Part shown: positions 1-32,549 of the stretch, piece by piece
Layout of the letters: the number at the start of each line of letters is the position of its first letter
How positions within the stretch are numbered: position 1 is the first letter of the stretch
NCBI GenBank assembly: GCA_965371225.1
Contig: CBDUXP010000017.1
Span: 1 to 64,000, forward strand
DNA length: 64,000 nucleotides
From: CBDUXP01 sp965371225 [NCBI: uncultured bacterium]
GTDB lineage: Bacteria; Abyssobacteria; SURF-5; CBDUXP01
Direction of reading: 5' to 3'
Position numbers and translations under genes: made by a program
Notes under the pieces: generated by a model
What the model was told of the DNA's origin: nothing
Database searches by the model: none
Seen by the model: only the letters and a program-made list of their open reading frames with translations

Positions 1-247
1 TTTCTGTAGTTCTCTGTCTTCCTTGGCGTGCTTGGCGTCCTTGGCGGTTCATCCTCACGGCACGGCGCGGCCCCCGTGCCCTACACCGATTGTCCCTTGG
101 TGTGCTTCGTGTCTTGGTGGTTCGTTTTCTGTAGTTCTCTGTCCTCCTTGGCGACCTTGGCGTCTTGGCGGTTCATTGTCACGGCACGGCTTCGTAGCCG
201 TGCCCTACACCGATTTCCCCTTGGTGTCCTTGGTGTCTTGGTGGTTA
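1..247. repeat. Tandem intergenic repeat, two ~125-base copies with hairpins
   Basis: Two imperfect copies begin at 1 and 126. Each carries, in order, a CTGTAGTTCTCTGTC block, several CCTTGGCG-type short direct repeats, a GGCACGG/CCGTGCC hairpin followed by CTACACCGAT, and CTTGGTGTCTTGGTGGTT. In the second copy the hairpin is perfect: GGCACGGCT at 183-191, TCGT loop, AGCCGTGCC at 196-204. In the first it is 59-65 with 74-80. The last CTTGGTGGTTA block supplies the TAA stop (245-247) of the minus-strand gene next to it. Short ORFs called here translate to NHQDTK-like peptides and are artefacts. The left edge may continue outside the window. Confidence 0.85.
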
Positions 248-3200
248 GATCTTTTCCAACAACTCCGCCACGTGCTGCGCGCGGATGGGCGCGCCCATGT
301 CGGTGAACAACCGCTGCGCCTCGCACAACTCCCGCTCACGCGTGTCGGCGTCGCCGGTAAGCCGCGCGAGTTCGGCAAGTTCGACGCGAAGGAACGGTTC
401 CATGATCGCGCCGCCGGTCTCTTGGACGAGTTCCAAGCCACGATCCAGCGCCGCCTGAATCTGCTCCCGCGCGTCCGCACCCTCGGTCCCCAACAGCACG
501 CGCGCCAGCGCGTACTGCGCCTGGCACTCCTGAAACTTCACGCCGCGGTCCACGGCCATGGCCACCGCCTCGTCCGCCGTCGCCCGCGCGCGCTTCAGCT
601 CGCCCCGGCCCAGGTACCCTTGCGCAAGGAGCGCAAGATACTCAGCTTCGAAGTGCCGGACGACCCGGTCGCGACGGGATATCTGTATGGCCTCTCCGAG
701 CACGGCCGTCAGGTTCTCCCAATCCTGGGCGGCCGAGAAGCCGTACGCAAGCCAACCTCTCGCCAGCACCCGCGAGTGCGAACTGCCAATCGTTTCGGCA
801 ATATGCAAGCCTTCCTGCCCGTGCGCCTGCGCCGCCGCGGTCGCGCCCTGAAGGGCCTCGACGCCGCACAAGTAGCCTGCTCCCCAGCCCAGGGTTTCGG
901 TCTCGCCCATTTGGCGGCCCGCATCGAGTGCTTGTCGGCACAAGCGTTCCCCGTCAGACGCCCGTCCTGTAAGCGCAAGGAAGTACCCTGCCTGAACGCG
1001 CGCCAGCACGTGTATGCGAAACCCAACGATCTCGAGATCGAAATCGGGATCCTCACGCGTCAACTCCATGCTGTGCTGCGCCGCGGCGAGAGCGTCATCC
1101 AGACGTCCGATGGCGAAGAGCGACACGGCATCCATCCACGAGTCAAGGCCGCGTGCCTCAGCGATCCGTGCCGCCTCCTCCGCAAACTCCACGTTCGCCC
1201 GCACGTCCCCTTCCGTATACCCTCGAATCGCGCCATAGATACCGTGCAGAAGCCACAAGCCGCGCATATCGTTGAGGCGTGTGGCCAGTTCTTTGCCTCG
1301 CTCGAAGAACCCGGTCGCCTCCTCGGCGGACATGCCGGCGCGCCAGCCCCAGTTCAACATCTGGAAGCAGGCCTCCGCAGCCAACCTGTCCGACTCCTCG
1401 GACTCCGGCAATGCCGCAACCAAGACGCCCACCTGTTGCCAATGGTGCAGGGCGGCCGGGATGTCGCTGCTTCCGATCCACCGGGCGGCGCGGCGATGCC
1501 ATTGGGCGGCGGGGAGGTGGTCGCCGGCGGCTTCGTGGTGGTGGGCGAGAACGGCGGCGCGTTCGTCCAGGTCGTCGGAGTAGAGTGCTTCGATGGCCTG
1601 CGCGACGGCGGTGTGGGTGCGGGTGCGCCGGTCCGTGAGCTGGGAGTGGTACGCCACCTCCTGCGTCAAGGCGTGTTTGAAAATGTACTCGGCCTGGGGG
1701 TACTGGCCGGTGGCGTACAGGAATTGGGCGCCGACGAGCGCGTGGAGCACGGCCTCCAAGTCGACTGGCGCGTCGGCCAGCACACGGCGCAGCACCGGCT
1801 CGGAGAACGTGCGCCCGATGACCGCGGCCGTCTGCAGGATGTCCTTCTGGCCCTCGGGCAGCCGGTCGATGCGGGCGCTCAGCACCGCCTGTACGGTGGC
1901 GGGGATCGTCAACTCCTCAATGGGCCGCGTCAGGGTGTACGCCCCCTTCGCGCCGGCCAGCCCGCCGTGCTCGGCCAGGTCCTGCACCGCCTCCTCAATG
2001 AAGAACGGGTTGCCCCCGGTCCCGTCGCGAATGAGCTGCGGCACCCCGTTCAGGGACGGATCTTGGCCCAACAGATCATCCAGCATGTATGTCGTAGCCT
2101 CAGCATCCAGCGGCGCGAGCGCAATCTGTTGGTAGGTGGACTGCCGCGTCCACTCGGCCTCAAACTCGGGCCGGAAGCTCACGAGCAACAGCGCATGCGC
2201 CCCCGGCACCGCCTCCACGAACGCCTCCACGAACCCCAGACTCGCCGCATCGAACCAGTGCAAGTCCTCGAACAGCAGCACCGCGGGCGCGGTGGCCTGG
2301 CGCATGAGTTGCTGCACCATGCCGAACAACTGCCGCTGCTTGGCCTCCGGGGCCATCCCCTGGGGCACGGGCCGCTGCGCGTCGGGGATGCCCAGGAACT
2401 CGAACAGCACGGGCAGCACGTCATCGAACGCCTTATCGAGTAGCAGCAGCATGCCCGCCACCTTCTGCCGCGCCTGCTGGTCCGTGTCCTGTTCCGTGAC
2501 GCGGAAAAACCTGCGCATGAACTCGAGCATGGGCAAGAGCGGCACCGCCTTGCCGTGCGCCACCCCGTGCGCTTCGTAAACGGGGATGTGCTGCGCGCTG
2601 CACTGCTGCGTGAACTCGTAACACAACCGGCTCTTCCCCGTGCCCGCCAGTGCGACGACGCCCACCACCTGTCCGTCACCGCTGCGCGCCCGCTCCAGTG
2701 CGTCGTGCAACGTCCGCATCTCTCCGTCGCGGCCCACGAACTTGCTGAACCCCCCCGCGCGCGCCACGTCCAGGCGGCTGCGCGCGGCGCCCACCCCTTG
2801 CAGCTCCCGCACGCCCAGTTCGCCTTGCACGCCCTTGACCGTCATGGGCCCCAGGTCGCGCATAGCGAAGAACCCGCCCACGATGCTGGCCGTGTGTTCC
2901 GTCAGGAAGACCGTGCCCGGGTCCGCCATGGTCTCCATCCGTTGCGCGAGTCCGACCGTATGCCCGATGGCCGTGTAGTCCATGTGCAGGTCGTCACCGA
3001 TGGCGGCCACTACGACTTCACCCGAGTTCAACCCCAGCCGGACAGCAAAGTCCAGCCCCTGCTGCTTACGCACCTCCGAGGCGTACCGCTTCACGTCGTT
3101 CTGCAACTGCAACGCGGCGTAACACGCGCGTTGGGCGTGATCCTCGTGCGCAATCGGCGCCCCGAACAGCGCCATGATCCCGTCGCCCGTGAATTGCGTC

Positions 3201-3580
3201 ACGGTCCCTTCGTACCGGTGCACCCCGTCCGCCAGCACGTGGAAGAACCCGTCCATGATCGTGCGCCAGGCCTCCGCGTCCACCTGCTCCTGCAGGGCCA
3301 TGGAGCCGCGCACGTCCGCGAACAGCACCGTCACCTGCTTGCGCTCCCCCTCGATGGCGCCGCGGCTATGCAGAATCTTGTCCGCCAGATGTTGCGGCGG
3401 GGTGAAGGAACGCGGCTCGGGGGTCGCCGCGCCGACCGCCGCGCCGCAACTGTCACAGAATTGGGCATTGATCCGCAGGTTGCTCGTGCACGAGGGGCAG
3501 GTGGTAGTCAGCGCCCCGCCGCAGCCGTCGCAGAACGCTGCGCCCTCCCTGTTTTCTTGCCCACACGCTGGACACCCCAT
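245..3580 (-). CDS. Zinc-ribbon / class III nucleotide cyclase / AAA ATPase / TPR signalling protein
   Basis: Predicted protein of 1111 residues. The N-terminus has CPAC...CDGC and CPSC...CDSC pairs, two zinc ribbons. A class III cyclase domain follows: FADVRGSM and FTGDGIMALFG hold the two metal-binding aspartates, then GHTVGLAQRM. Next is an AAA/STAND-type ATPase with Walker A GTGKSRL and a Walker B-like LLFEDLHWFD, and the C-terminal third is helical and TPR-like. This architecture is common in multidomain regulatory proteins; whether it makes cAMP is inferred. ATG at 3580 is preferred over an upstream in-frame start at 3661 because GAGGGGG lies just ahead of it and the zinc ribbon begins at once. 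The stop codon lies inside the tandem repeat. Divergent from the rhomboid gene. Confidence 0.9.
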   Translation of the reverse strand: MGCPACGQENREGAAFCDGCGGALTTTCPSCTSNLRINAQFCDSCGAAVGAATPEPRSFTPPQHLADKILHSRGAIEGERKQVTVLFADVRGSMALQEQVDAEAWRTIMDGFFHVLADGVHRYEGTVTQFTGDGIMALFGAPIAHEDHAQRACYAALQLQNDVKRYASEVRKQQGLDFAVRLGLNSGEVVVAAIGDDLHMDYTAIGHTVGLAQRMETMADPGTVFLTEHTASIVGGFFAMRDLGPMTVKGVQGELGVRELQGVGAARSRLDVARAGGFSKFVGRDGEMRTLHDALERARSGDGQVVGVVALAGTGKSRLCYEFTQQCSAQHIPVYEAHGVAHGKAVPLLPMLEFMRRFFRVTEQDTDQQARQKVAGMLLLLDKAFDDVLPVLFEFLGIPDAQRPVPQGMAPEAKQRQLFGMVQQLMRQATAPAVLLFEDLHWFDAASLGFVEAFVEAVPGAHALLLVSFRPEFEAEWTRQSTYQQIALAPLDAEATTYMLDDLLGQDPSLNGVPQLIRDGTGGNPFFIEEAVQDLAEHGGLAGAKGAYTLTRPIEELTIPATVQAVLSARIDRLPEGQKDILQTAAVIGRTFSEPVLRRVLADAPVDLEAVLHALVGAQFLYATGQYPQAEYIFKHALTQEVAYHSQLTDRRTRTHTAVAQAIEALYSDDLDERAAVLAHHHEAAGDHLPAAQWHRRAARWIGSSDIPAALHHWQQVGVLVAALPESEESDRLAAEACFQMLNWGWRAGMSAEEATGFFERGKELATRLNDMRGLWLLHGIYGAIRGYTEGDVRANVEFAEEAARIAEARGLDSWMDAVSLFAIGRLDDALAAAQHSMELTREDPDFDLEIVGFRIHVLARVQAGYFLALTGRASDGERLCRQALDAGRQMGETETLGWGAGYLCGVEALQGATAAAQAHGQEGLHIAETIGSSHSRVLARGWLAYGFSAAQDWENLTAVLGEAIQISRRDRVVRHFEAEYLALLAQGYLGRGELKRARATADEAVAMAVDRGVKFQECQAQYALARVLLGTEGADAREQIQAALDRGLELVQETGGAIMEPFLRVELAELARLTGDADTRERELCEAQRLFTDMGAPIRAQHVAELLEKI

Positions 3581-3647
3581 GCCCAATCCCCCTCGGAAGC
3601 CGCAACCGCGCTTGGTCCGTAGCATATCGCAGGCGGGACACGGGGGT

Positions 3648-3676
3648 TTGCTGGCTGGCACCTGTTGGCATATAAT
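3648..3676 (+). promoter_or_regulatory. Sigma70-like promoter for the rhomboid gene
   Basis: TTGCTG at 3648-3653, 17 bases, then a perfect TATAAT at 3671-3676. Transcription would start near 3683, exactly where an ATG lies, so any transcript would begin with a leaderless small ORF that ends on the rhomboid start codon. The -35 match is only partial. Confidence 0.5.
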
Positions 3677-5849: not shown

Positions 5850-7046
5850 TTACTGCAGCATCCGGCGGGAGACGACGATGCGCTGCACCTCGCCCGTGCC
5901 CTCGAAGATGTCGTACACTTTGATGTCGCGGAACCACTTTTCCACGTACGCGTCGTGCATGAGCCCGTGTGCTTCCATGAGCTGCACCGCGTCGCTGGTG
6001 ACCTCCACCCCCATCCGGCCGCAGTAGGCCTTACACATGGACGCCTCCATGGAGTTGGGGATGCCCTGATCGGCGAGCCAGCCGGCATGCCAGCAGAGCA
6101 GGCGGCCGGTCTGGATCTTCCGGTGCATGTCCGCCAGCCGGACCTTGAGCAGGTGGTAGCGAGGCAGCGGGCGGTCCAGCATGTAGGTGTTCGTCAGGAA
6201 TTCGTGCACGCGTTCATAGGCGGCGCGAGCAATCCCCACGGCGATGATGGCCACCAGGGGGCGCGTCGCATCGAACGTCTTCATCGCGGTTTTGAACCCG
6301 CCGCTCGCCTGCTTCTCGTAGTGCTCTTCCCCGCCCAGGAGGTTTTCCTTGGGCACCACGCAGTCCTCGTACACCAGTTCGGCGGTCTCCGACGCGCGGA
6401 GGCCCATCTTGTCCTCGATCTTGCCGACGCGGAAGCCCGGCGTGTCGTTCGGGACCACGAACGCTCGGTGCGCTTCACGCCCCTGATTCGGGTCCAAGGT
6501 CGCAAACACCACGTTCCACTCGGCGCGCGCGCCGTTCGTGATGAAGCACTTGGTGCCGTTGATGACGTAGTTGTCGCCATCCTTGCGGCAGGTGGTGCGA
6601 ATGGCGGCGGCGTCGGAGCCGGCGCCGGGCTCCGTCAGGGCGTACGCGCCCCAGCGCAACCTATCGTCCTGCTCGAAGGGGCCGAGGAACCGTTCCTTCT
6701 GTTCGGGGGTGCCGGTGATGCTCACGGGCGGGCCGCCCAGACCCGGCCCCGGCTGGGCCAGCGCGATCGCCGCATCGCCCCAGCCGAATTCCTCTGCACC
6801 AATGAGCATGTTGCGGTTGTTGAAGCGCACGGTCGGCCGGCCGTTGTCGCCCCCGTCCGTGTCCTGGCGCTGCCCGCGGCCCGCGCTCTGGCGCATGCGG
6901 GTGATCTGCTGGAGCGTCCGGAAGGTCTCCTCCGGCACCTCCCCCGTGCGGTCGGCTTCCAAGGACGCTGGCCGTAAGATGGACTCGGCGATCTGGTGGG
7001 CCATTGTCTTCATCTGTTGCTGCTGTTCGGAGAGCGTGAAGTCCAT
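5850..7046 (-). CDS. Acyl-CoA dehydrogenase, catalytic-base subunit of a probable heteromeric pair
   Basis: 398 residues, acyl-CoA dehydrogenase fold. It has TEPGAGSD (138-145), which contacts FAD and substrate, and the C-terminal FEGTGEVQR (from 381) with Glu382 at the usual catalytic-base position. It lacks the second set of FAD contacts: the RxxFGxxIxxxQ segment reads TYMLDRPLPRYHLL and the GGxGY segment reads MEAHGL (from 357). A Gly/Asp/Arg-rich insertion lies at about 55-75. Its gene follows 15 bases after the other dehydrogenase. Such split motifs are known in alpha2beta2 dehydrogenases of actinobacterial sterol side-chain breakdown. Substrate is unknown; a bulky acyl-CoA is an inference. 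Confidence 0.9.
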   Translation of the reverse strand: MDFTLSEQQQQMKTMAHQIAESILRPASLEADRTGEVPEETFRTLQQITRMRQSAGRGQRQDTDGGDNGRPTVRFNNRNMLIGAEEFGWGDAAIALAQPGPGLGGPPVSITGTPEQKERFLGPFEQDDRLRWGAYALTEPGAGSDAAAIRTTCRKDGDNYVINGTKCFITNGARAEWNVVFATLDPNQGREAHRAFVVPNDTPGFRVGKIEDKMGLRASETAELVYEDCVVPKENLLGGEEHYEKQASGGFKTAMKTFDATRPLVAIIAVGIARAAYERVHEFLTNTYMLDRPLPRYHLLKVRLADMHRKIQTGRLLCWHAGWLADQGIPNSMEASMCKAYCGRMGVEVTSDAVQLMEAHGLMHDAYVEKWFRDIKVYDIFEGTGEVQRIVVSRRMLQ

Positions 7047-7061
7047 GATCGGTCCTCCTGC

Positions 7062-8198
7062 CTAGGCCAGCAGCGCGTCGGCCAGCGCGATGGCTTGCAG
7101 TTCCGAGATGCCGTGGAGCACTTCTTGCGCGCGGGCGTCGCGCATCCACTTTTCGGCGGGATGGTCCTTGATGTATCCGTGGCCCCCGAGGATTTGTACT
7201 CCCTCACAGGCCACGAACCGGGCGGTTTCCGCGACTTGCAGCAGCGCTTCCGGGACAGCCACGGCGCCGTCGCCTCCCCCGGCCAGCTCCGTGGCAGCAT
7301 GCCAGGTTTGCCATCGGGCGCCGTTGACGAGAATGCCGCTGTCCGCCAGCTTGAACGCGATGGCCTGGTGCTCGCTGATGGGCTTGCCGAACGTCACCCG
7401 GTCCTTCGAATACCAGACGGAGTAGTCGCACGATGCGCGCGCGAGGCCCACCGACCGCGCGGCCCCGAGGACCTGGACTTTGCGCAATGCAGTCTTGACC
7501 GCCGCCAGGTCGGTGGAACCGGCAAGCAGTTCGGCCGGGGTGTTGTCCAGCGCGATGGGGTTGGTGGTCAGCGTGTGCAGCCCGACCTTAACGTCCGCCG
7601 GGTCCACGCTCAGCCCCTGGGCCCCCGCACGGACGACGTACACGCGGATGCCGTCTTCCCCGTCCGTGCCGGCCACGCGGGCGGTGACGAGGAAGTAGTC
7701 CGCCGCCTCGGCGGCAATCACGAGTAGCTTCCGGCCCGTCAGGGTGACACTTTCGCCGTCGCCCGAGGCCACGGTTTCCGTCTCGCCCAGCGTGGTGCCG
7801 GCCACGGGTTCGTGCCACGCCAGGCTCGCCGTGTACGTGCTGTTGGCGGGTTCGGTGAACGGCGTCAGGAGCGTCTGCTGCTGTGCGTCGCTGCCCAACG
7901 TCAAGACCACGTGAATGGGTCCGCCACTGCGGTCCAAGTCGGCCGCTGCGCCCACGTCACCCACCGCCAGTTCTTCGTTCACCAGGACGTGAGCCGCCAG
8001 GTCCAGGCCCTGCCCGCCGAGGGCTTCGGGGATGGCCAGGCTAGTCATGCCGAGTTCGTGGAACGCCTTGCGCAGTTCATCGCTGACCTGCCCAGCCTTC
8101 TCGAACTCGCGCAAGTGCGGGCGCAGCTGTTCCATGGCGAAGTCCGCAACCGTGTCTTTAATGAGTTGCAGGTCTTCATCCAAACCGAAATCAATCAT
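7062..8198 (-). CDS. Acyl-CoA dehydrogenase, FAD-clamp subunit lacking the catalytic glutamate
   Basis: 378 residues from the ATG at 8198, preceded by GGGGGA. A longer upstream frame to 8447 looks untranslated. RVTFGKPISEHQ (267-278) and GGHGY (338-342), the FAD contacts normally given by the neighbouring subunit, are intact. The TEPxAGSD segment is degenerate (LAWHEPVAG) and the catalytic YEGT is LHGIS (361-365), so the base is missing. It is the mirror image of the downstream subunit, and the two genes form an operon. The pair is predicted to assemble shared active sites with one FAD per heterodimer. Alone it should be inactive. Confidence 0.88.
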   Translation of the reverse strand: MIDFGLDEDLQLIKDTVADFAMEQLRPHLREFEKAGQVSDELRKAFHELGMTSLAIPEALGGQGLDLAAHVLVNEELAVGDVGAAADLDRSGGPIHVVLTLGSDAQQQTLLTPFTEPANSTYTASLAWHEPVAGTTLGETETVASGDGESVTLTGRKLLVIAAEAADYFLVTARVAGTDGEDGIRVYVVRAGAQGLSVDPADVKVGLHTLTTNPIALDNTPAELLAGSTDLAAVKTALRKVQVLGAARSVGLARASCDYSVWYSKDRVTFGKPISEHQAIAFKLADSGILVNGARWQTWHAATELAGGGDGAVAVPEALLQVAETARFVACEGVQILGGHGYIKDHPAEKWMRDARAQEVLHGISELQAIALADALLA

Positions 8199-8635
8199 GG
8201 AGTGGTCCCCCGGGGGCCGCTGCGACCGGTGGTGCGTTGCATGCTCGGAGCCAGTATGGGCACTGAAACTGCGACCGAAACTGCGGTGGAGTAAATGGCG
8301 TTTACCTTTACCGCATGAAGTATACCCGGAATCTGGCCCATTGGCCAAATTTAGGTTTCCGCCTGCACCCCACCCGGGCATCGGGCAAAAGATGCGGGCC
8401 GTCACGGCGAAGGGGTACGCCGGGATGAACAGGCGGCTATCGCGCATGCTCCCAGGAAATGCCGGGCCATCCCATGCTTACGAATCTGTATAAGTGGCAA
8501 ATTATATAATTAGTTACATCATACTAATCAATCTTTTACATTAGGTAGGATATCGGCTGTTGGCCCCCGCGGCGCTTCCCGCGGCAGGGCAGGCGGCCGG
8601 GAATTCATTTCCCGCGAAGCGTCGAGATGTGGTTT
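8199..8635. other. Lower-GC intergenic segment
   Basis: No convincing gene. From about 8490 to 8550 the sequence is strongly AT-rich, unlike its surroundings. A small hairpin CGGGAA-TTCAT-TTCCCG lies near 8598-8616 within a larger imperfect inverted repeat (CGCTTCCCGCGG against CCCGCGAAGCG), which could terminate the TfoX-like gene transcript. The part next to 8198 should hold the promoter of the dehydrogenase operon. Confidence 0.5.
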
Positions 8636-9007
8636 TCAACAGGCCCTTACGTATTTTGTGCTTTTGTCTAAAAGCTTTCCAAATTCTTTTTTATCCTCCA
8701 GTATCCGCCTTGGAAGCACCGCATACTCCTTCTTAACATGCCCCTTCTTAACATGCCCCTTCGGAAAATATTTCAAGTGCTTTGCGCCCTGCTCTTTGAA
8801 GGCTTTTTTCAGAGCCTTGTCCCCAAGTCGGAGGGCGATGCCGAATTTTCCACATGAGATGAAAATGGTGCCATTGATATAGCCGCCCACCGCGCCAAAC
8901 ACATTCTTGAATTCCAGTTTGTGCGTGAAGGCCAGGCGGGGACGGGTTCGTCGAAGGAGTCCTTCCAATTTCTGCAAGTAGATATCGTTCATTTGCTCAT
9001 CCGTCAC
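8636..9007 (-). CDS. TfoX N-terminal-domain-like small protein
   Basis: 123 residues if the GTG at 9007 is used; ATG at 8992 (residue 6) has a weak GGATGAG ahead of it and is an alternative. The pattern NVFGAVGGYINGTIFISCG...IALRLG...LKYFPKG resembles the TfoX/Sxy N-terminal domain, found in competence regulators and many stand-alone proteins of unknown role. A 15-base tandem duplication encodes GHVKK-GHVKK. Base composition is clearly more AT-rich than neighbouring genes and the gene sits just past the 3' end of tRNA-Leu, both consistent with acquired DNA. Function is not established. Confidence 0.6.
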   Translation of the reverse strand: MTDEQMNDIYLQKLEGLLRRTRPRLAFTHKLEFKNVFGAVGGYINGTIFISCGKFGIALRLGDKALKKAFKEQGAKHLKYFPKGHVKKGHVKKEYAVLPRRILEDKKEFGKLLDKSTKYVRAC

Positions 9008-9173
9008 GTGCGCATAATTTGACCTGTTATCTACGCAGAGTCATCTAAGAAACCTAATGAATGTGACTGGACGTGGGATTGCTGTCCCACGCAGTGCGCA
9101 GTGGGGCGTGGTCCCGCCGCCTGCCACAGTATTGGTGCCCCGTGAGAAACGTAATCCGCGCGTGAGAGATGGT

Positions 9174-9260
9174 TGGTGCGGAAGGGGGGATTTGAACCCC
9201 CACGACCTTGCGGCCACTAGAACCTGAATCTAGCGCGTCTGCCAATTCCGCCACTTCCGC
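9174..9260 (-). tRNA. tRNA-Leu (anticodon CAG), CCA encoded
   Basis: The minus strand reads GCGGAAGTGGCGGAATTGG... with acceptor stem GCGGAAG/CTTCCGC, an anticodon stem CTAGA/TCTAG around loop TTCAGGT (CAG on the plus strand as ctg 9224-9226), a long variable arm typical of a class II tRNA, and GGTTCAAATCC as the T arm. The body is 9177-9260 and 9174-9176 encode CCA. The apparent ORF reading MAELADALDSG across it is the usual artefact of tRNA-Leu genes. Confidence 0.96.
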
Positions 9261-27597: not shown

Positions 27598-28996
27598 GGC
27601 CGGTATCGGGCCCGACCGGAAAGTCGCCGTCCTCCTGCCCAACGCGCCGCAGTTCTGCGCGGCGTATTTCGGCATCCTGACGGCCGGGGCGACCGTAGTC
27701 CCCTTAAGCGTTCTGCTCACCGCCGACGAAGTGCAGTATCACCTGGATGATTCCGGGTCGGTGGCGCTGGTGTGTTGGCATGGATTCCTTGAGGCCGGGC
27801 TGGAGGGTTTCCGGCGGTCCGACTCGTGTGAGCAGTTGTTCGTGGCCGGCGCGAATGGCGCGGCGCCGCCGGAGGGCGCGGTAGCATTCGAGGATGCGCT
27901 CGCGAACCTCGGTACAGTGACCGAGGACGTCGAGCAGACCATGCCGGACGACACGGCGGTGATTCTTTACACCTCGGGGACCACGGGCAAGCCGAAGGGC
28001 GCCGAGCTGTCCCACTTCAACCTCTTCTTTAACTGCTACAACGGGGCGCGCGACCTGATGCAGATCGGGCCCGACGACCGCTCGCTGGTGGCGCTCCCCC
28101 TGTTCCACAGCTTCGGCCAGTCCTGCCTCCAGAACACGGCGTTTTCGGTGGGCGCTGGGATCTCGCTCGTACCCCGCTTCGATCCGTATGTGGTGCTCGA
28201 GACCATTCAGCGCGATGCGATCACCGTCTTTGCCGGCGTGCCCACCATGTACACGTACATGCTGAACGCGCCGGATACGGACAAGTACGACGTCAGCTCG
28301 CTGCGCGTGTGCCTCTCCGGTGGCGCGGCGATTCCCGTCCAGGTGCTGAAGGGATTCGAGGAGAAGTTCGATGTGACCATCCTCGAGGGATTCGGCCTGA
28401 GCGAGACCTCCCCCATCGCCATCTTCAACAAGTCCAAGGAGCAACGGAAGTACGGCAGCATCGGCCTCCCGATCTGGGGAGTTGAATCGAAGATCGTGGA
28501 CGATAATGATGCGGAACTTCCGCGCGGAGAGCCGGGCGAGATCGTTATTCGCGGGCACAACATCATGAAGGGCTACTACAACAAGCCCGAGGCCACCGCC
28601 GAAGCCATGAAGAACGGCTGGTTCCACAGCGGCGACATCGGCTACCAGGACGACGAGGGCTTCTTCTTCATCACCGACCGGAAAAAGGACATGATCATCC
28701 GCGGCGGGTACAACGTCTACCCGCGCGAGCTGGAGGAGGTGCTCTTCGCGCACCCCGCCGTTGCCGAGGCCGCGGTCATCGGCGTGCCCGACGAGTCGCT
28801 CGGCGAAGAGGTCAAGGCCTGCGTCGTGCTCAAACCCGATCAGCAGGTCAGCGCGCAGGACATCATCGACTACTGCAAGGAGCACCTGGCCAAATACAAG
28901 TATCCGCGCCACGTGCAGTTCCTCGACGACCTGCCCAAAGGCAGCACCGGCAAGATCCTCAAACGCGAACTCCGCGACCAGTACGGTACGAAATAA
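27458..28996 (+). CDS. fadD: Long-chain fatty-acid/acyl-CoA synthetase (AMP-forming)
   Basis: 512 residues from ATG 27458 with GAGGGAG six bases upstream. ANL-superfamily motifs: phosphate loop YTSGTTGKPKGAE, adenine motif GFGLSETSP, hinge ITDRKKDMIIRGGYNVYP and the catalytic lysine in PKGSTGKILKREL. It activates carboxylic acids to acyl-AMP then acyl-CoA. Substrate is unknown, but the window also has two acyl-CoA dehydrogenase genes. The symbol names the family, not a proven orthologue. Confidence 0.88.
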   Translation: MSLNLSTILHQSAATHPDQTAIRAGDVHLTYTQVQQSAYRFATVLREAGIGPDRKVAVLLPNAPQFCAAYFGILTAGATVVPLSVLLTADEVQYHLDDSGSVALVCWHGFLEAGLEGFRRSDSCEQLFVAGANGAAPPEGAVAFEDALANLGTVTEDVEQTMPDDTAVILYTSGTTGKPKGAELSHFNLFFNCYNGARDLMQIGPDDRSLVALPLFHSFGQSCLQNTAFSVGAGISLVPRFDPYVVLETIQRDAITVFAGVPTMYTYMLNAPDTDKYDVSSLRVCLSGGAAIPVQVLKGFEEKFDVTILEGFGLSETSPIAIFNKSKEQRKYGSIGLPIWGVESKIVDDNDAELPRGEPGEIVIRGHNIMKGYYNKPEATAEAMKNGWFHSGDIGYQDDEGFFFITDRKKDMIIRGGYNVYPRELEEVLFAHPAVAEAAVIGVPDESLGEEVKACVVLKPDQQVSAQDIIDYCKEHLAKYKYPRHVQFLDDLPKGSTGKILKRELRDQYGTK

Positions 28997-29058
28997 GAGG
29001 CCTGACATCACGTCACATCTTCCGCGGGAATTGTTCGGCTAGGATTGGGAGCGCCACG

Positions 29059-30417
29059 ATGGGTCACCCTCTTCGCTCAATGAATGCTGTGAGGGATCAG
29101 TTGGGGGGGCACTACACAAGGATCAAAGAAGACCTTGATCCCAGAAGTAGGGAGCGCGCCAAGGATGCAGCCCTCAAGAGCACACTGCGGACAGAATGCG
29201 GAGCAGCCTGCGCTATAGAAGATGCGTGTCACCCGAGTGGCCGCGTAACTGCGCCCCTTGAGCTGGCGCATCTCGTGCCGGTGCACAGCGGTGGAAGAAC
29301 GGAGCAGTGTAATGTGCTGCTGCTGTGTAAAGACTGCCATAGGAACTGGTTCGAAAAGGGCTGCGTATCCGTGGAGAACATGCGCAGGATCGCTCAACAC
29401 CAGAAACAGGGACGCCGATCCCCGCGCCCAGCAGGCAAGAAACAACGATCGACATTGTCCCCTACAATTACCCAACCCCCCCAGGAAGTTGCCGAAGACA
29501 TCGATGGGATAAAAGAGTTAGCCCGAATCGGGCACAATCGGAAAGCGACGAGTCGAATAGATGCCCTACTAAATCGCAAAAGATGGTCAGAGACCACGAA
29601 ATCATATTTGCTTATCCAGAAGGCAGGCTATAGCCGATGTCGCTCAGCGTACGACGGCTTGGTCACCGCACGTAATATACTCATAGGCCTCCCTACGGAG
29701 ACGATTCGAAATGAAGATCTCGCTCATTACTACTACGAACACGGCTACGTGCTTCGGCTGCTTGGGGAGCATCAACTTGCAGCAAAGTCCATGAAGCGAA
29801 GTGCGACCCTCAGCGAATGCAATCCGCTTGCGAAGGTTCCGGCTCAAGTCAATCAACTCCTGTCCTTGCTTGCCAATACGGAAAACCCTACTGCTTCCGA
29901 CATAGCCAAGTGGCAATCGCTTCTCGCACAATCACGTGAGATCGCCGAGCGATACCCCGGGCCACATGGAGGCGGCTGGATATTCAATTGCGCGTTTCAT
30001 CAGGTGCAGATTCATTTGAAGCTAGGTAACGGCGAAGATGCATCGCAAGCCTTGAAGCATGCAGAGAAGCTTTACTGGAGCTCTGATGTAACTACTGGGT
30101 GGTTTGCCTCGAGCGGCCCACTTTTGGCCTCATTGAAAGGTTTATTGAGGGTCTTGCATCCACGAGCAACTCCTGAGGCGAAAGACGTGGAGCGTGGCGT
30201 CGGTTTGCTGGCTAGAGCCTTTGTCGCAAGGAATTTAAACGGCGTTCGGCCGGAGCTGATTCGTGACATAGGCTACGGTCTTGCCATAGGCTTGAGGAAG
30301 ACCGGAAATCACAAGGATGTCGAAACTGCCCGCGTCCTACAGGACACAATGGACTGCCTGCAAGATGGTACATCGGTAGTTTGGCCGTGGCGCGCTGTAG
30401 ACGACTGCGGAGGCTGA
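29059..30417 (+). CDS. HNH-nuclease-domain protein with long helical repeat-like C-terminus
   Basis: 452 residues. An N-terminal HNH fold is seen: Cys47-x3-Cys51, LELAHLVP with His71, Asn85 in EQCNVLLL, Cys90-x2-Cys93 and His94 (CKDCHRNW). Residues 150-452 are mostly helical with TPR-like spacing (YYYEHGYVLRLLGEHQLAAK, ALKHAEKLYW). GC content and codon use are clearly lower than in neighbours, and there is no operon partner. ATG 29059 has GGGAG seven bases upstream. A nuclease plus a sensor-like repeat domain in an apparently acquired singleton fits a mobile or defence role, but nothing proves it. Confidence 0.7.
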   Translation: MGHPLRSMNAVRDQLGGHYTRIKEDLDPRSRERAKDAALKSTLRTECGAACAIEDACHPSGRVTAPLELAHLVPVHSGGRTEQCNVLLLCKDCHRNWFEKGCVSVENMRRIAQHQKQGRRSPRPAGKKQRSTLSPTITQPPQEVAEDIDGIKELARIGHNRKATSRIDALLNRKRWSETTKSYLLIQKAGYSRCRSAYDGLVTARNILIGLPTETIRNEDLAHYYYEHGYVLRLLGEHQLAAKSMKRSATLSECNPLAKVPAQVNQLLSLLANTENPTASDIAKWQSLLAQSREIAERYPGPHGGGWIFNCAFHQVQIHLKLGNGEDASQALKHAEKLYWSSDVTTGWFASSGPLLASLKGLLRVLHPRATPEAKDVERGVGLLARAFVARNLNGVRPELIRDIGYGLAIGLRKTGNHKDVETARVLQDTMDCLQDGTSVVWPWRAVDDCGG

Positions 30418-30530
30418 CCTCCCGCTTCAATTTGCGGAAGCTCGGGAATAGGCAGATGTCCGCGGACGCGCCGGTCCGCCCCTACATCGTCAGCTAATCC
30501 TTGTGGGCCGCTATGAATTGCGCCTAGGCC

Positions 30531-32549
30531 CTAGTTTCCATACCAGCGAGCCGATCCCTGTTGATAGTTCACCAGCAGCCGGCGGAGCGTTCGGTTCTGC
30601 GGATCGCGGTCGAGGGCGGCGCGCAGGATGGCTTCGCCTTTCGCGACGTCGCCACGCGCGGCGTGGACCATGGCAAGTTTGGCATAGGCGTCTACGTTGT
30701 CGACCGACAACGTAATGGCTTGGTCGAGCGCGTACTCGGCGTTCGCCCAATCCCGATGCCACGCGTACCAGGCGCCGATGGTGCTGCGGCGGCGACTGAA
30801 CGCCTGCCGCGCCTGGTAGTCCGTCGGGTAGTCGTGGCGCCGGAGCAGTTTGTGCGCGATCGCATCCCAGAACTCCCGATCCCGCGCGGCAATGGCCGGG
30901 TCCACACCGCTGACGGGGCGCGGGAAGACGCGCAACAGCATCCCGTGCGGCTGCGCGTTGGCGTACACCCACGGCACGGGAATCCCTTCGTCGTAGAAGA
31001 ACGCGCGCTCCGGGTTCTTCTGTAACAGCTTCCCGAAGAGGTAGCCGTTCACCTGGGCCAGCGGTTCGTGGCCGTACACGGCCGTCGCCCCGGGCGCCAC
31101 TTCGTTGTACGCGGCCAGGTAGTCCGCGTCCGTCGGCCACGTCAGCCCGGGGCGCTGGTTCTCCACTTCCGCCGCGTACGCCGGGCTGGCGAGCCGGTTG
31201 AATGAGACGGCCACGAGGTCCGGATGGTCGCCGGTCACTTTGGCGTAAAGCATGCCGAAGTGCACCGCGCCCGTGCCCGCCACCACCACTGCGTTCTCGG
31301 ACAGGTCCGTGACGATGTGTTGTACGAAATGTTCGCCCAGCACGTTCGCCCGGCGGGACACGCGCGGCGCTACGACGACGGCCTGAATGCACGCCAGCGC
31401 GAGCACCGCGCCGGCCACGTTGCCGCCCTGCCGGGACCGCATGGGCGAGCCACTCTCCACCCACCACGCGATGGCCGGTACCGCGAGCAACACCGCGGCC
31501 AGCCCGGGCAGCATGAAGTACACGGAGAGCACGGCCCGGTTGCTGTTGTCCAGCTCCGTGTTCGCCAGGTACGTGAAGAACACCCCCGCGCCGGCGAACA
31601 CGAGGCTGTGCCCCGCGACCCAGGCCCGGCCGGCCGGCGTCTCGCGCCGCCAAGTCGCGAGGAGTGCCGCCACCCCGGCTAGCACCAGACCCAAATATTC
31701 GATCGTCAGCCACGTGCCGAAGAACCGCAGTTGCGCGACCACCGTGCCCCACTCCCGTCGCAGACCGAGGCTCCGGTACTGCTGGCGCGACAGATGCGCC
31801 CAGAATCCTTCCCACGTCTCCGTATTGCTCCAGTCGACGACCGGATCCCGCGCGGACAGGAGCGGGAGCAGCGCGTACGCGGCAATCCCTACCAGTGCCG
31901 CGTCGCCGAGTGTCAAGAGCAGGCGCGGGCGGAGCGCACGCCGCCAGTCCCACACGAGGGCAAACGCCAGGTACCCGGGCACGGCGAGCAGGAGCGTCTG
32001 GTGGTTTGCGAGTCCGAGTCCCAACGCGAGCCCTACCAGCCCCGCCATGAGCATCGGCGCGGCACCCCGCCCCCAGCTCAACATCGCGACCCACGCAATG
32101 ACGGCCAGCAGGACGTGCAGCGCGTAGACCTCCGTCGCAATCGCCGCGCGCCACGCTTCGGTACTGAAGGCAAACAGCAGTGCGCCTCCCCCGGCCAGCG
32201 CCGACCGTGCGCGCGTGGGTTCCCGCGCGTTATCCAGGTCGATCGCTTTCCACAGGAGCCACGCCACACCGCCGGCGGCGCACGCCATATACACCGCACT
32301 GCTCAGGGCAATCTTCCATGCCGCATCCGCGCCCGGCAGGAGGGTCCACAGGTGCGACAACACGGTCCACACCGGATACCCCGGTGGATGGGGCACCCCC
32401 AGCTCGACAGCCGCCGCGACTAATTCGCCGCTGTCGCCGAATCCGATGCCGGTGCGCAGCGTGATCGCGTACGCCGCGAACGCCACCCCGGCCACGCCCG
32501 GTGCCAACCACGCGGGCGGGGCCGCGCGGCCTATGGGCCGGTCTCCCAC
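30531..32549 (-). CDS. DUF2723 GT-C-like membrane protein with C-terminal TPR
   Basis: 672 residues from GTG 32549. The long frame upstream of it only overlaps the GT2 gene. The DUF2723 start is classic: FGDSGELVAAAVELGVPHPPGYPV, with acidic DSGE and HPPGYP in the first loop. About ten membrane segments follow, then a periplasmic part with two TPR-like units (DAYAKLAMVHAARGDVAKGE). Likely a polyprenyl-phosphate-sugar-dependent transferase. It is the last gene of the glycan run and overlaps the preceding GT2 gene by 19 bases. Confidence 0.83.
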   Translation of the reverse strand: MGDRPIGRAAPPAWLAPGVAGVAFAAYAITLRTGIGFGDSGELVAAAVELGVPHPPGYPVWTVLSHLWTLLPGADAAWKIALSSAVYMACAAGGVAWLLWKAIDLDNAREPTRARSALAGGGALLFAFSTEAWRAAIATEVYALHVLLAVIAWVAMLSWGRGAAPMLMAGLVGLALGLGLANHQTLLLAVPGYLAFALVWDWRRALRPRLLLTLGDAALVGIAAYALLPLLSARDPVVDWSNTETWEGFWAHLSRQQYRSLGLRREWGTVVAQLRFFGTWLTIEYLGLVLAGVAALLATWRRETPAGRAWVAGHSLVFAGAGVFFTYLANTELDNSNRAVLSVYFMLPGLAAVLLAVPAIAWWVESGSPMRSRQGGNVAGAVLALACIQAVVVAPRVSRRANVLGEHFVQHIVTDLSENAVVVAGTGAVHFGMLYAKVTGDHPDLVAVSFNRLASPAYAAEVENQRPGLTWPTDADYLAAYNEVAPGATAVYGHEPLAQVNGYLFGKLLQKNPERAFFYDEGIPVPWVYANAQPHGMLLRVFPRPVSGVDPAIAARDREFWDAIAHKLLRRHDYPTDYQARQAFSRRRSTIGAWYAWHRDWANAEYALDQAITLSVDNVDAYAKLAMVHAARGDVAKGEAILRAALDRDPQNRTLRRLLVNYQQGSARWYGN

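What the first reader, a model, noticed from the sequence alone, without database searches (positions are those of the whole stretch)
5850..8198. Two adjacent acyl-CoA dehydrogenases with complementary broken motifs
The downstream protein keeps TEPGAGSD and catalytic Glu382 but has lost RxxFGxxIxxxQ and GGxGY. The upstream protein keeps RVTFGKPISEHQ and GGHGY but has lost TEPxAGSD and the catalytic glutamate. In homotetrameric dehydrogenases these two sets come from neighbouring subunits to form one FAD site, so each gene here appears to encode one half. Alpha2beta2 dehydrogenases of this kind are known from actinobacterial sterol catabolism; a matching pair here would extend the arrangement to another lineage and maybe another substrate.
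Basis: partly seen in the sequence, partly recalled or inferred. Interest (0 to 1): 0.72.

Follow-up and report, generated by a model that had tools for sequence, protein, structure and literature searches.

The report
Two-gene split acyl-CoA dehydrogenase
Two neighbouring genes each carry half of the cofactor site of a fat-burning enzyme, so they probably work only as a mixed pair; the same pair turns up side by side in many bacterial phyla and has a little-studied counterpart in mycobacteria.

Summary
U (window 7062-8198, minus strand) keeps RxxFGxxIxxxQ and GGxGY but has lost TEPxxGSD, TNG and the catalytic Glu (His here). D (5850-7046) keeps TEPxxGSD and Glu382 but has lost the other two motifs. 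It is not local decay. U lies directly upstream of D in 80 of 85 D-loci read (window included), in eight named phyla; in the other five genomes a U-type gene lies elsewhere. The exchange is absolute: full TEP..GSD in 85/85 D and 0/80 U; R+F+Q in 80/80 U and 0/85 D. A heteromeric enzyme (D: flavin, base, substrate; U: ADP half of FAD) is by far the best reading, though no complex was modelled or measured. It is not new in kind. Synteny puts actinobacterial members at the fadE24-fadE23 locus, already called a complex in M. tuberculosis. It is not the steroid type: D's base sits at the MCAD position (21/21), while steroid/pimeloyl-type alpha subunits use the isovaleryl position (9/9), and the trees keep the groups apart, though one AU test does not exclude a shared beta-subunit origin. 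The substrate is unknown; ordinary fatty acyl-CoA is likeliest.

The parts
7062..8198 (-). U: acyl-CoA dehydrogenase homologue, predicted beta-type subunit (ADP half of FAD), 378 aa
   Evidence: ORF; three Pfam ACAD domains; U clade; model pLDDT 95.4, MCAD fold
5850..7046 (-). D: acyl-CoA dehydrogenase, predicted catalytic alpha-type subunit (flavin, base, substrate), 398 aa
   Evidence: ORF; three Pfam ACAD domains; D clade; model pLDDT 89.2, MCAD fold
7054..7059 (-). AGGAGG, likely ribosome-binding site of D, inside the 15-nt U-D gap
   Evidence: sequence
6612..6635 (-). D: intact TEPGAGSD (residues 138-145)
   Evidence: T, E, G, S, D in 85/85 D, all five together in 0/80 U
5901..5903 (-). 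D: catalytic Glu382 at the MCAD position
   Evidence: E in 85/85 D
6153..6188 (-). D: lost RxxFGxxIxxxQ (TYMLDRPLPRYH, residues 287-298)
   Evidence: R+F+Q together in 0/85 D
5961..5984 (-). D: lost QIxGGxGY (QLMEAHGL, residues 355-362)
   Evidence: the double G in 3/85 D
7365..7400 (-). U: intact RVTFGKPISEHQ (residues 267-278)
   Evidence: R, F, Q in 80/80 U
7173..7196 (-). U: intact QILGGHGY (residues 335-342)
   Evidence: GG.G in 80/80 U
7791..7814 (-). U: lost TEPxxGSD (HEPVAGTT, residues 129-136)
7113..7115 (-). U: His362 where the catalytic Glu would be
   Evidence: E at this column in 36/80 U

Best explanation
U and D are the two subunits of an obligate heteromeric acyl-CoA dehydrogenase, most likely alpha2beta2 with two FADs per tetramer. 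D holds the isoalloxazine ring (TEPxxGSD, TNG, EGT), the catalytic base Glu382 and the acyl-CoA pocket. U is catalytically dead and lends the neighbouring-subunit half (RxxFGxxIxxxQ, QIxGGxGY) that grips the ADP part of FAD. Shown here: motif exchange, its conservation, fixed gene order, co-occurrence, fold of each subunit. Inferred: the complex, its stoichiometry, and the reaction (alpha,beta-dehydrogenation of a fatty acyl-CoA, electrons to ETF). The pair belongs to the subfamily that, by synteny, is represented in mycobacteria by FadE24-FadE23, apart from the steroid/pimeloyl-type heteromers.
For: Exchange with no exception: full TEP..GSD+Glu+Thr in 85/85 D; R+F+Q and GG.G in 80/80 U; R+F+Q in 0/85 D; TEP..GSD in 0/80 U. 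U directly upstream of D in 80 of 85 D-loci incl. window; in the 5 others a U-type gene is elsewhere in the assembly. From the U side, 12 U places in 9 of 37 genomes of the Myxococcota group; 11 of the 12 were read and 11 of 11 have D adjacent. Median U-D gap 32 nt, 74 of 79 under 100, start codons chosen by script. U and D distances correlate (r 0.92 over 77 loci; within-clade permutations 0/1000). U and D are each a clade and join (SH-aLRT 99) with one intact enzyme, also with motif columns removed. Both models take the full MCAD fold. Published precedent: alpha binds flavin, Glu and substrate, beta the ADP-ribose of FAD (PMC11153573 passage).
Against: No complex was predicted or measured. 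36 of 80 U proteins still have E at the catalytic column, so 'U has no base' is lineage-specific. Two genomes (of L053 and L061) carry an extra D without its own adjacent U. PMC11980559 (passage) says the FadE23-FadE24 complex has a catalytic activity other than acyl-CoA dehydrogenation. Of 10 operon-like neighbours scanned from 7 loci, 6 have nothing to do with beta-oxidation, and no neighbour gene in the window names a substrate. The loci were fetched by similarity to D, so they are not an unbiased sample.
Confidence: 0.85

Rival explanations
1. The pair does form a complex, but catalyses something other than acyl-CoA alpha,beta-dehydrogenation.
For: PMC11980559 (passage) states this of FadE23-FadE24; the reference at the end of that sentence is a nucleotide-binding survey. 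The pair is free-standing in 46 of 80 loci by crude gene calls, and 6 of 10 scanned neighbours are unrelated to beta-oxidation.
Against: Glu, TEP..GSD and EGT are kept in 85/85 D; D's nearest fold is MCAD; one Bacillota locus (L023) reads U-D-ACAD-FadB-like-thiolase; FadE23 and FadE24 rise with beta-oxidation enzymes in starved BCG (PMC11250799 passage).
Confidence: 0.12
2. D acts alone as a homomer with an altered FAD grip, and U is a regulator or stabiliser without part in the FAD site.
For: Orphan D paralogs in L053 and L061; U diverges faster than D (34% vs 53% mean identity to the window in its clade).
Against: U keeps exactly the residues D has lost, R, F, Q, G, G at 80/80; a mere regulator would have no reason to. 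The two genomes with orphan D also hold a full pair.
Confidence: 0.06
3. U is a decaying duplicate of an ordinary homotetrameric gene.
For: U has lost its own flavin site and evolves fast.
Against: Open frame, tight spacing, and the same loss and retention across eight phyla are not decay.
Confidence: 0.02
4. The split shares one origin with the steroid/pimeloyl-type heteromeric acyl-CoA dehydrogenases.
For: Same division of motifs; the AU test does not reject U plus the RxxFG-type subunits of those pairs as one clade (p 0.257); on the alpha side rejection is weak (p 0.038).
Against: Trees with and without motif columns keep the two sets apart, intact enzymes between them; base at the MCAD position in 21/21 D but at the isovaleryl position in 9/9 of the other alpha subunits.
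Confidence: 0.2

Closest known systems
FadE24-FadE23 (Rv3139-Rv3140) of Mycobacterium tuberculosis
   Same: Called a complex (PMC11980559 passage). Locus order impC-pflA-fadE24-fadE23-fadB4 (PMC2834668 passage) resembles hisN then U then D in Tsukamurella (directly) and Rhodococcus (two opposite-strand genes between), whose proteins fall in the U and D subfamilies.
   Different: The window pair is from another, unidentified lineage; 31-34% (U) and 40-41% (D) identical to the Acinetobacter, Nocardia, Tsukamurella and Rhodococcus members; window U lacks their N-terminal extension if the 8198 start is right. The M. tuberculosis sequences themselves were not compared here.
ChsE4-ChsE5, ChsE1-ChsE2, IpdE1-IpdE2, Tcur3481-Tcur3483 steroid heterotetramers; fused CasC
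   Same: Two ACAD subunits or domains, one with flavin site and base, the other needed for FAD binding (PMC11153573, PMC8399759 passages).
   Different: Base at the isovaleryl-type helix position (chain 4x28_A, ChsE4 by recall, reads NHER there and FGGGT at the MCAD position; 9/9 relatives); separate part of the tree; steroid substrates.
PimC-PimD pimeloyl-CoA dehydrogenase and proteobacterial dicarboxylate homologues
   Same: Adjacent pair with the same TEP/RxxFG exchange in below-cut-off relatives L094, L095, L097, L100 (GGxGY of the partner was not matched by my pattern); heterotetramer suggested in print (PMC12543098 passage).
   Different: The window scores far below the curated cut-offs (D pimC_large 63 of 624, U pimD_small 72 of 653 bits) and lies elsewhere in the tree.
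MCAD/SCAD homotetramers
   Same: Fold and base position.
   Different: Each homotetramer subunit carries all motifs; here they are divided.

Membership tests
Acyl-CoA dehydrogenase superfamily | N, middle and C-terminal ACAD domains | tested here: met
   both proteins over Pfam cut-offs
Acyl-CoA dehydrogenase superfamily | ACAD fold | tested here: met
   (best Z 46.4 for D and 50.0 for U, both MCAD)
Heteromeric (alpha2beta2) acyl-CoA dehydrogenases | two adjacent ACAD genes with complementary halves of the FAD site | tested here: met
Heteromeric (alpha2beta2) acyl-CoA dehydrogenases | both subunits present together | tested here: met
   80/85 adjacent, the other 5 genomes hold a U-type gene; 11/11 read U loci, of 12, have D
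Heteromeric (alpha2beta2) acyl-CoA dehydrogenases | physical alpha2beta2 complex with two FAD | not testable with these tools
   single chains only; needs co-purification or a structure
Steroid/pimeloyl-type heteromers (ChsE, IpdE, CasC, PimCD) | catalytic Glu at the isovaleryl-type position of the alpha subunit | tested here: not met
   T at that position and E at the MCAD position in the window; 9/9 of their alpha subunits have E there
Steroid/pimeloyl-type heteromers (ChsE, IpdE, CasC, PimCD) | same clade | tested here: inconclusive
   trees separate them; AU p 0.038 for the alpha side, 0.257 for the beta side
Steroid/pimeloyl-type heteromers (ChsE, IpdE, CasC, PimCD) | NCBIfam IpdE2, pimC, pimD curated cut-offs | tested here: not met
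   56 of 450 (U), 63 of 624 (D), 72 of 653 bits (U)
FadE24-FadE23 subfamily | U and D fall in the clades that hold the actinobacterial pair near an inositol-phosphatase-family gene | tested here: met
FadE24-FadE23 subfamily | sequence relation to Rv3139 and Rv3140 themselves | not tested
   those sequences were not fetched; the link rests on synteny

The most novel reading that the evidence does not exclude
The split acyl-CoA dehydrogenase was invented at least twice. Beside the steroid/pimeloyl lineage there is a second, general lineage built on an MCAD-type scaffold with the MCAD-position base, spread over at least eight bacterial phyla as a two-gene unit for ordinary (perhaps long-chain) fatty acyl-CoA; the window shows it in an unidentified lineage.
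Probability: 0.55. Interest if true: 0.6.

Novelty: new member of a known kind. Interest (0 to 1): 0.43.

Why it matters
In the papers I could read, heteromeric acyl-CoA dehydrogenases are mostly told as a steroid-catabolism speciality. Here one is a common two-gene module of bacteria, with no steroid gene seen among the window ORFs tested. A tree with intact relatives, two split lineages and fused forms makes it possible to ask how a homotetramer divides its cofactor site between two genes, whether it happened twice, and what is gained. Practically, both genes are likely to be annotated as plain 'acyl-CoA dehydrogenase', and either one expressed alone would probably look inactive.

Tried and rejected

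Whole genome of the window: not held. Lineage: LepA is at most 61% identical over near-full length in the 20 genomes searched; searches in the groups of G002 (1 genome) and G014 (52 genomes) at a strict limit rang nowhere, which shows nothing by itself. Host left unidentified.

Steroid substrate: considered and not supported. No steroid gene was seen among the window ORFs tested against Pfam, 25 of 47 called, and the base position differs. Conserved operon partner: none found. By crude gene calls the pair has no close same-strand neighbour in 46 of 80 loci. Neighbour clusters, named by me from one representative each: an ABC-type ATPase in 14 loci, an SDR in 13, a thiolase-like one in 10, an enoyl-CoA hydratase-like one in 8; there is no control for chance. 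Of 10 operon-like neighbours scanned from 7 loci, 2 are beta-oxidation proteins (both in L023), 2 are SDRs (L025, L026) and 6 are unrelated. The Acinetobacter neighbour L001:7326-8555 looks AlkB/AlkM-like by recalled sequence; Pfam says FA_desaturase, NCBIfam nothing at 1e-20.

4x28 did not appear in the 50 entries listed for either model; Tcur3481-Tcur3483 chains did for U (ranks 44 and 50). With the U profile the best solved chain scores 345 bits (1ukw), below the 386-488 of U places; with the D profile the best is 334 (1ukw), members' own scores with it not measured.

Test of U+D as one clade without the intact L005 enzyme did not finish. Trees are quick searches with SH-aLRT support only. 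Papers: Wipperman 2013 and Yang 2015/16 are not held; known here only through other papers' words and recall. Literature searches (open-licence library, listings seen) showed no paper on this cross-phylum family; that is not proof of absence. Of PMC8593149 only reference-list hits were seen; passages of PMC6851490, PMC8296198 and PMC6429209 added nothing decisive.

Rows dropped: L009, L022, L026 (short U) from the distance test (77 loci); U and D thinned by hand to 21 loci each for the tree, and not all fetched split pairs were used (89 rows); L005 is an intact enzyme and not counted as D. One of 12 U places (in G034) was not read. Of 19 lower-scoring loci read (L142-L160), all keep a TEP..GSD-type motif; 15 match my RxxFG pattern, 2 more read RKTMG..I...Q, one RKQFE..I...Q, one RKTFG without the Q.

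Full report
What is there. On the minus strand, U (8198-7062, 378 aa) is followed after 15 nt and an AGGAGG by D (7046-5850, 398 aa). Both carry the three acyl-CoA dehydrogenase domains over Pfam's cut-offs. Neither reaches any NCBIfam cut-off in the list returned, so those models do not name the pair. A longer start for U at 8447 exists; the close relative L007 has a Met at the place of the 8198 start, which I take as the start.

The motifs. In a joint alignment with nine ordinary enzymes, window D has TEPGAGSD, FITNG and FEGT but TYMLDRPLPRYH and QLMEAHGL where RxxFGxxIxxxQ and QIxGGxGY belong; window U has RVTFGKPISEHQ and QILGGHGY but HEPVAGTT, LVIAA and LHGI. Nothing is merely shifted. 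Which motif touches which half of FAD is recalled knowledge of MCAD structures; the division itself is described in print for ChsE4-ChsE5 and ChsE1-ChsE2, where alpha binds the isoalloxazine, base and substrate and beta the ADP-ribose of FAD (PMC11153573, passage).

It is a conserved pair. tblastn in the plasmid collection put U and D on neighbouring genes in Acinetobacter, Nocardia and Tsukamurella records, and the Rhodococcus hit for D has a U-type neighbour; both proteins of all four were read. An alignment of these four and the window D (A1) found 80 loci in genomes, the best 80 of more. Of 85 loci with D (window, 4 plasmid-collection, 80 genomic), 80 have U directly upstream. Of the five others, L031 and L046 begin at a contig edge and L010, L053, L061 have no U beside D. 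In all five assemblies a U-type gene was found: on other contigs for four, two of them (Gordonia, Williamsia) with a complete second pair, and on the same contig about 19 kb away in Dadabacteria. The adjacent pairs carry titles from Myxococcota, Nitrospirota, Planctomycetota, Bacillota, Actinomycetota, Pseudomonadota, Schekmanbacteria and Spirochaetota.

From the other side, a U profile over 37 genomes of the Myxococcota group gave 12 places at 386 bits or more in 9 genomes, the next at 358 (cut set after seeing the gap). Eleven of the 12 were read and 11 of 11 have D adjacent. Nineteen lower-scoring loci read out are enzymes that keep TEP..GSD.

The exchange is absolute. Full T/S-E..G-S-D plus Glu plus Thr: 85/85 D; TEP..GSD: 0/80 U. 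R, F and Q together: 80/80 U, 0/85 D. GG.G: 80/80 U; the double G: 3/85 D. One point goes against the simple story: 36 of 80 U proteins keep E at the catalytic column, though without the rest of that site; the window U has H. Gene spacing is tight (median 32 nt, 74 of 79 under 100, starts chosen by script), and U and D distances track each other (r 0.92 overall; 0/1000 permutations in either clade reach the observed value), with U evolving faster. Shared descent adds to such correlations.

Structure. AlphaFold2 models of D (pLDDT 89.2) and U (95.4) take the complete ACAD fold, closest to MCAD (Z 46.4 and 50.0). A complex could not be modelled.

Relation to known heteromers. In a tree of 89 proteins (quick search, SH-aLRT) U is one clade (99), D is one clade (99), and they join (99) with one intact enzyme, L005; the steroid, pimeloyl and fused types fall elsewhere. 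Leaving out the motif columns gives the same picture (U 98, D 99, joined 99). AU tests reject a joint clade for the alpha side weakly (p 0.038) and not for the beta side (p 0.257). An independent character agrees with separation: the base is at the MCAD position in 21/21 D, while 9/9 alpha subunits (7 separate, 2 fused) of the other types have Glu at the isovaleryl-type position and Gly or Ala at the MCAD one; 4x28_A (ChsE4 by recall) shows the same in the printed alignment. I therefore think it likely, not proven, that the split arose twice.

What is already known. FadE24 (Rv3139) is described as part of a FadE23-FadE24 complex, repressed by cholesterol, with the remark that it has an activity other than acyl-CoA dehydrogenation (PMC11980559, passage). 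In M. tuberculosis the order is impC-pflA-fadE24-fadE23-fadB4 (PMC2834668, passage), resembling hisN then U then D in Tsukamurella, and in Rhodococcus with two opposite-strand genes between. FadE23 and FadE24 rise with other beta-oxidation enzymes in starved BCG (PMC11250799, passage). Heteromeric ACADs for bile acids, some suggested and one confirmed, are in a review (PMC8399759, passages) and a dicarboxylate pair is suspected (PMC12543098, passage). So the kind is known; the window adds a member, and the cross-phylum spread and base position are what I found beyond the passages I could read.

Function. The window gives no operon clue: the pair stands between a rhomboid-like membrane protein gene on the other strand (recalled by sequence) and a TfoX_N gene. 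Elsewhere it has no close same-strand neighbour in 46 of 80 loci, the window counted. One Bacillota locus (L023) reads U-D-ACAD-FadB-like-thiolase and two actinobacterial MAG loci have an SDR next, but 6 of the 10 neighbours scanned are unrelated. Fatty acyl-CoA beta-oxidation is the best guess (about 0.6, inference); chain length is unknown.

Noticed in passing
window 29059-30417 (+), region 28001-32000: 452-aa ORF with low third-position GC (0.56) in the window's GC-poorest 4-kb block (0.617); no Pfam hit at 1e-5; its N-terminal third reads like an HNH nuclease (recalled motif). Probably acquired DNA.
   Followed up: partly
window 8636-9260 (-): A GC-poor TfoX N-terminal-domain gene (8636-9007) beside tRNA-Leu(CAG) 9174-9260, possibly an integration neighbourhood.
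   Followed up: no
L053, L061: Gordonia rhizosphera and Williamsia sterculiae carry an extra D-type gene without adjacent U, besides a complete U-D pair elsewhere; does the orphan share the other pair's U?
   Followed up: partly
L010 and L127: In a Dadabacteria genome U and D are unlinked, about 19 kb apart on one contig.
   Followed up: partly
L161, L162: Two genomes of the Myxococcota group (G045, G055) hold two U-D pairs each, the second with TEASAGSD or TEANAGSD in D; a third (G034) has a second U that was not read.
   Followed up: no
L001 (NZ_CP104448.1): Record titled 'plasmid unnamed1' of Acinetobacter baumannii is 4.09 Mb, probably a mislabelled chromosome; its pair lies beside an AlkM-like (by recall; Pfam FA_desaturase) gene and an AraC-type regulator.
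   Followed up: partly
L001-L004 U proteins: The U proteins of Acinetobacter, Nocardia, Tsukamurella and Rhodococcus have an extra N-terminal segment of roughly 70-100 residues absent from the window U; role unknown.
   Followed up: no
window 245-3661 (-): 1138-aa double-zinc-ribbon, guanylate-cyclase and AAA_16 protein, a large signalling protein.
   Followed up: no
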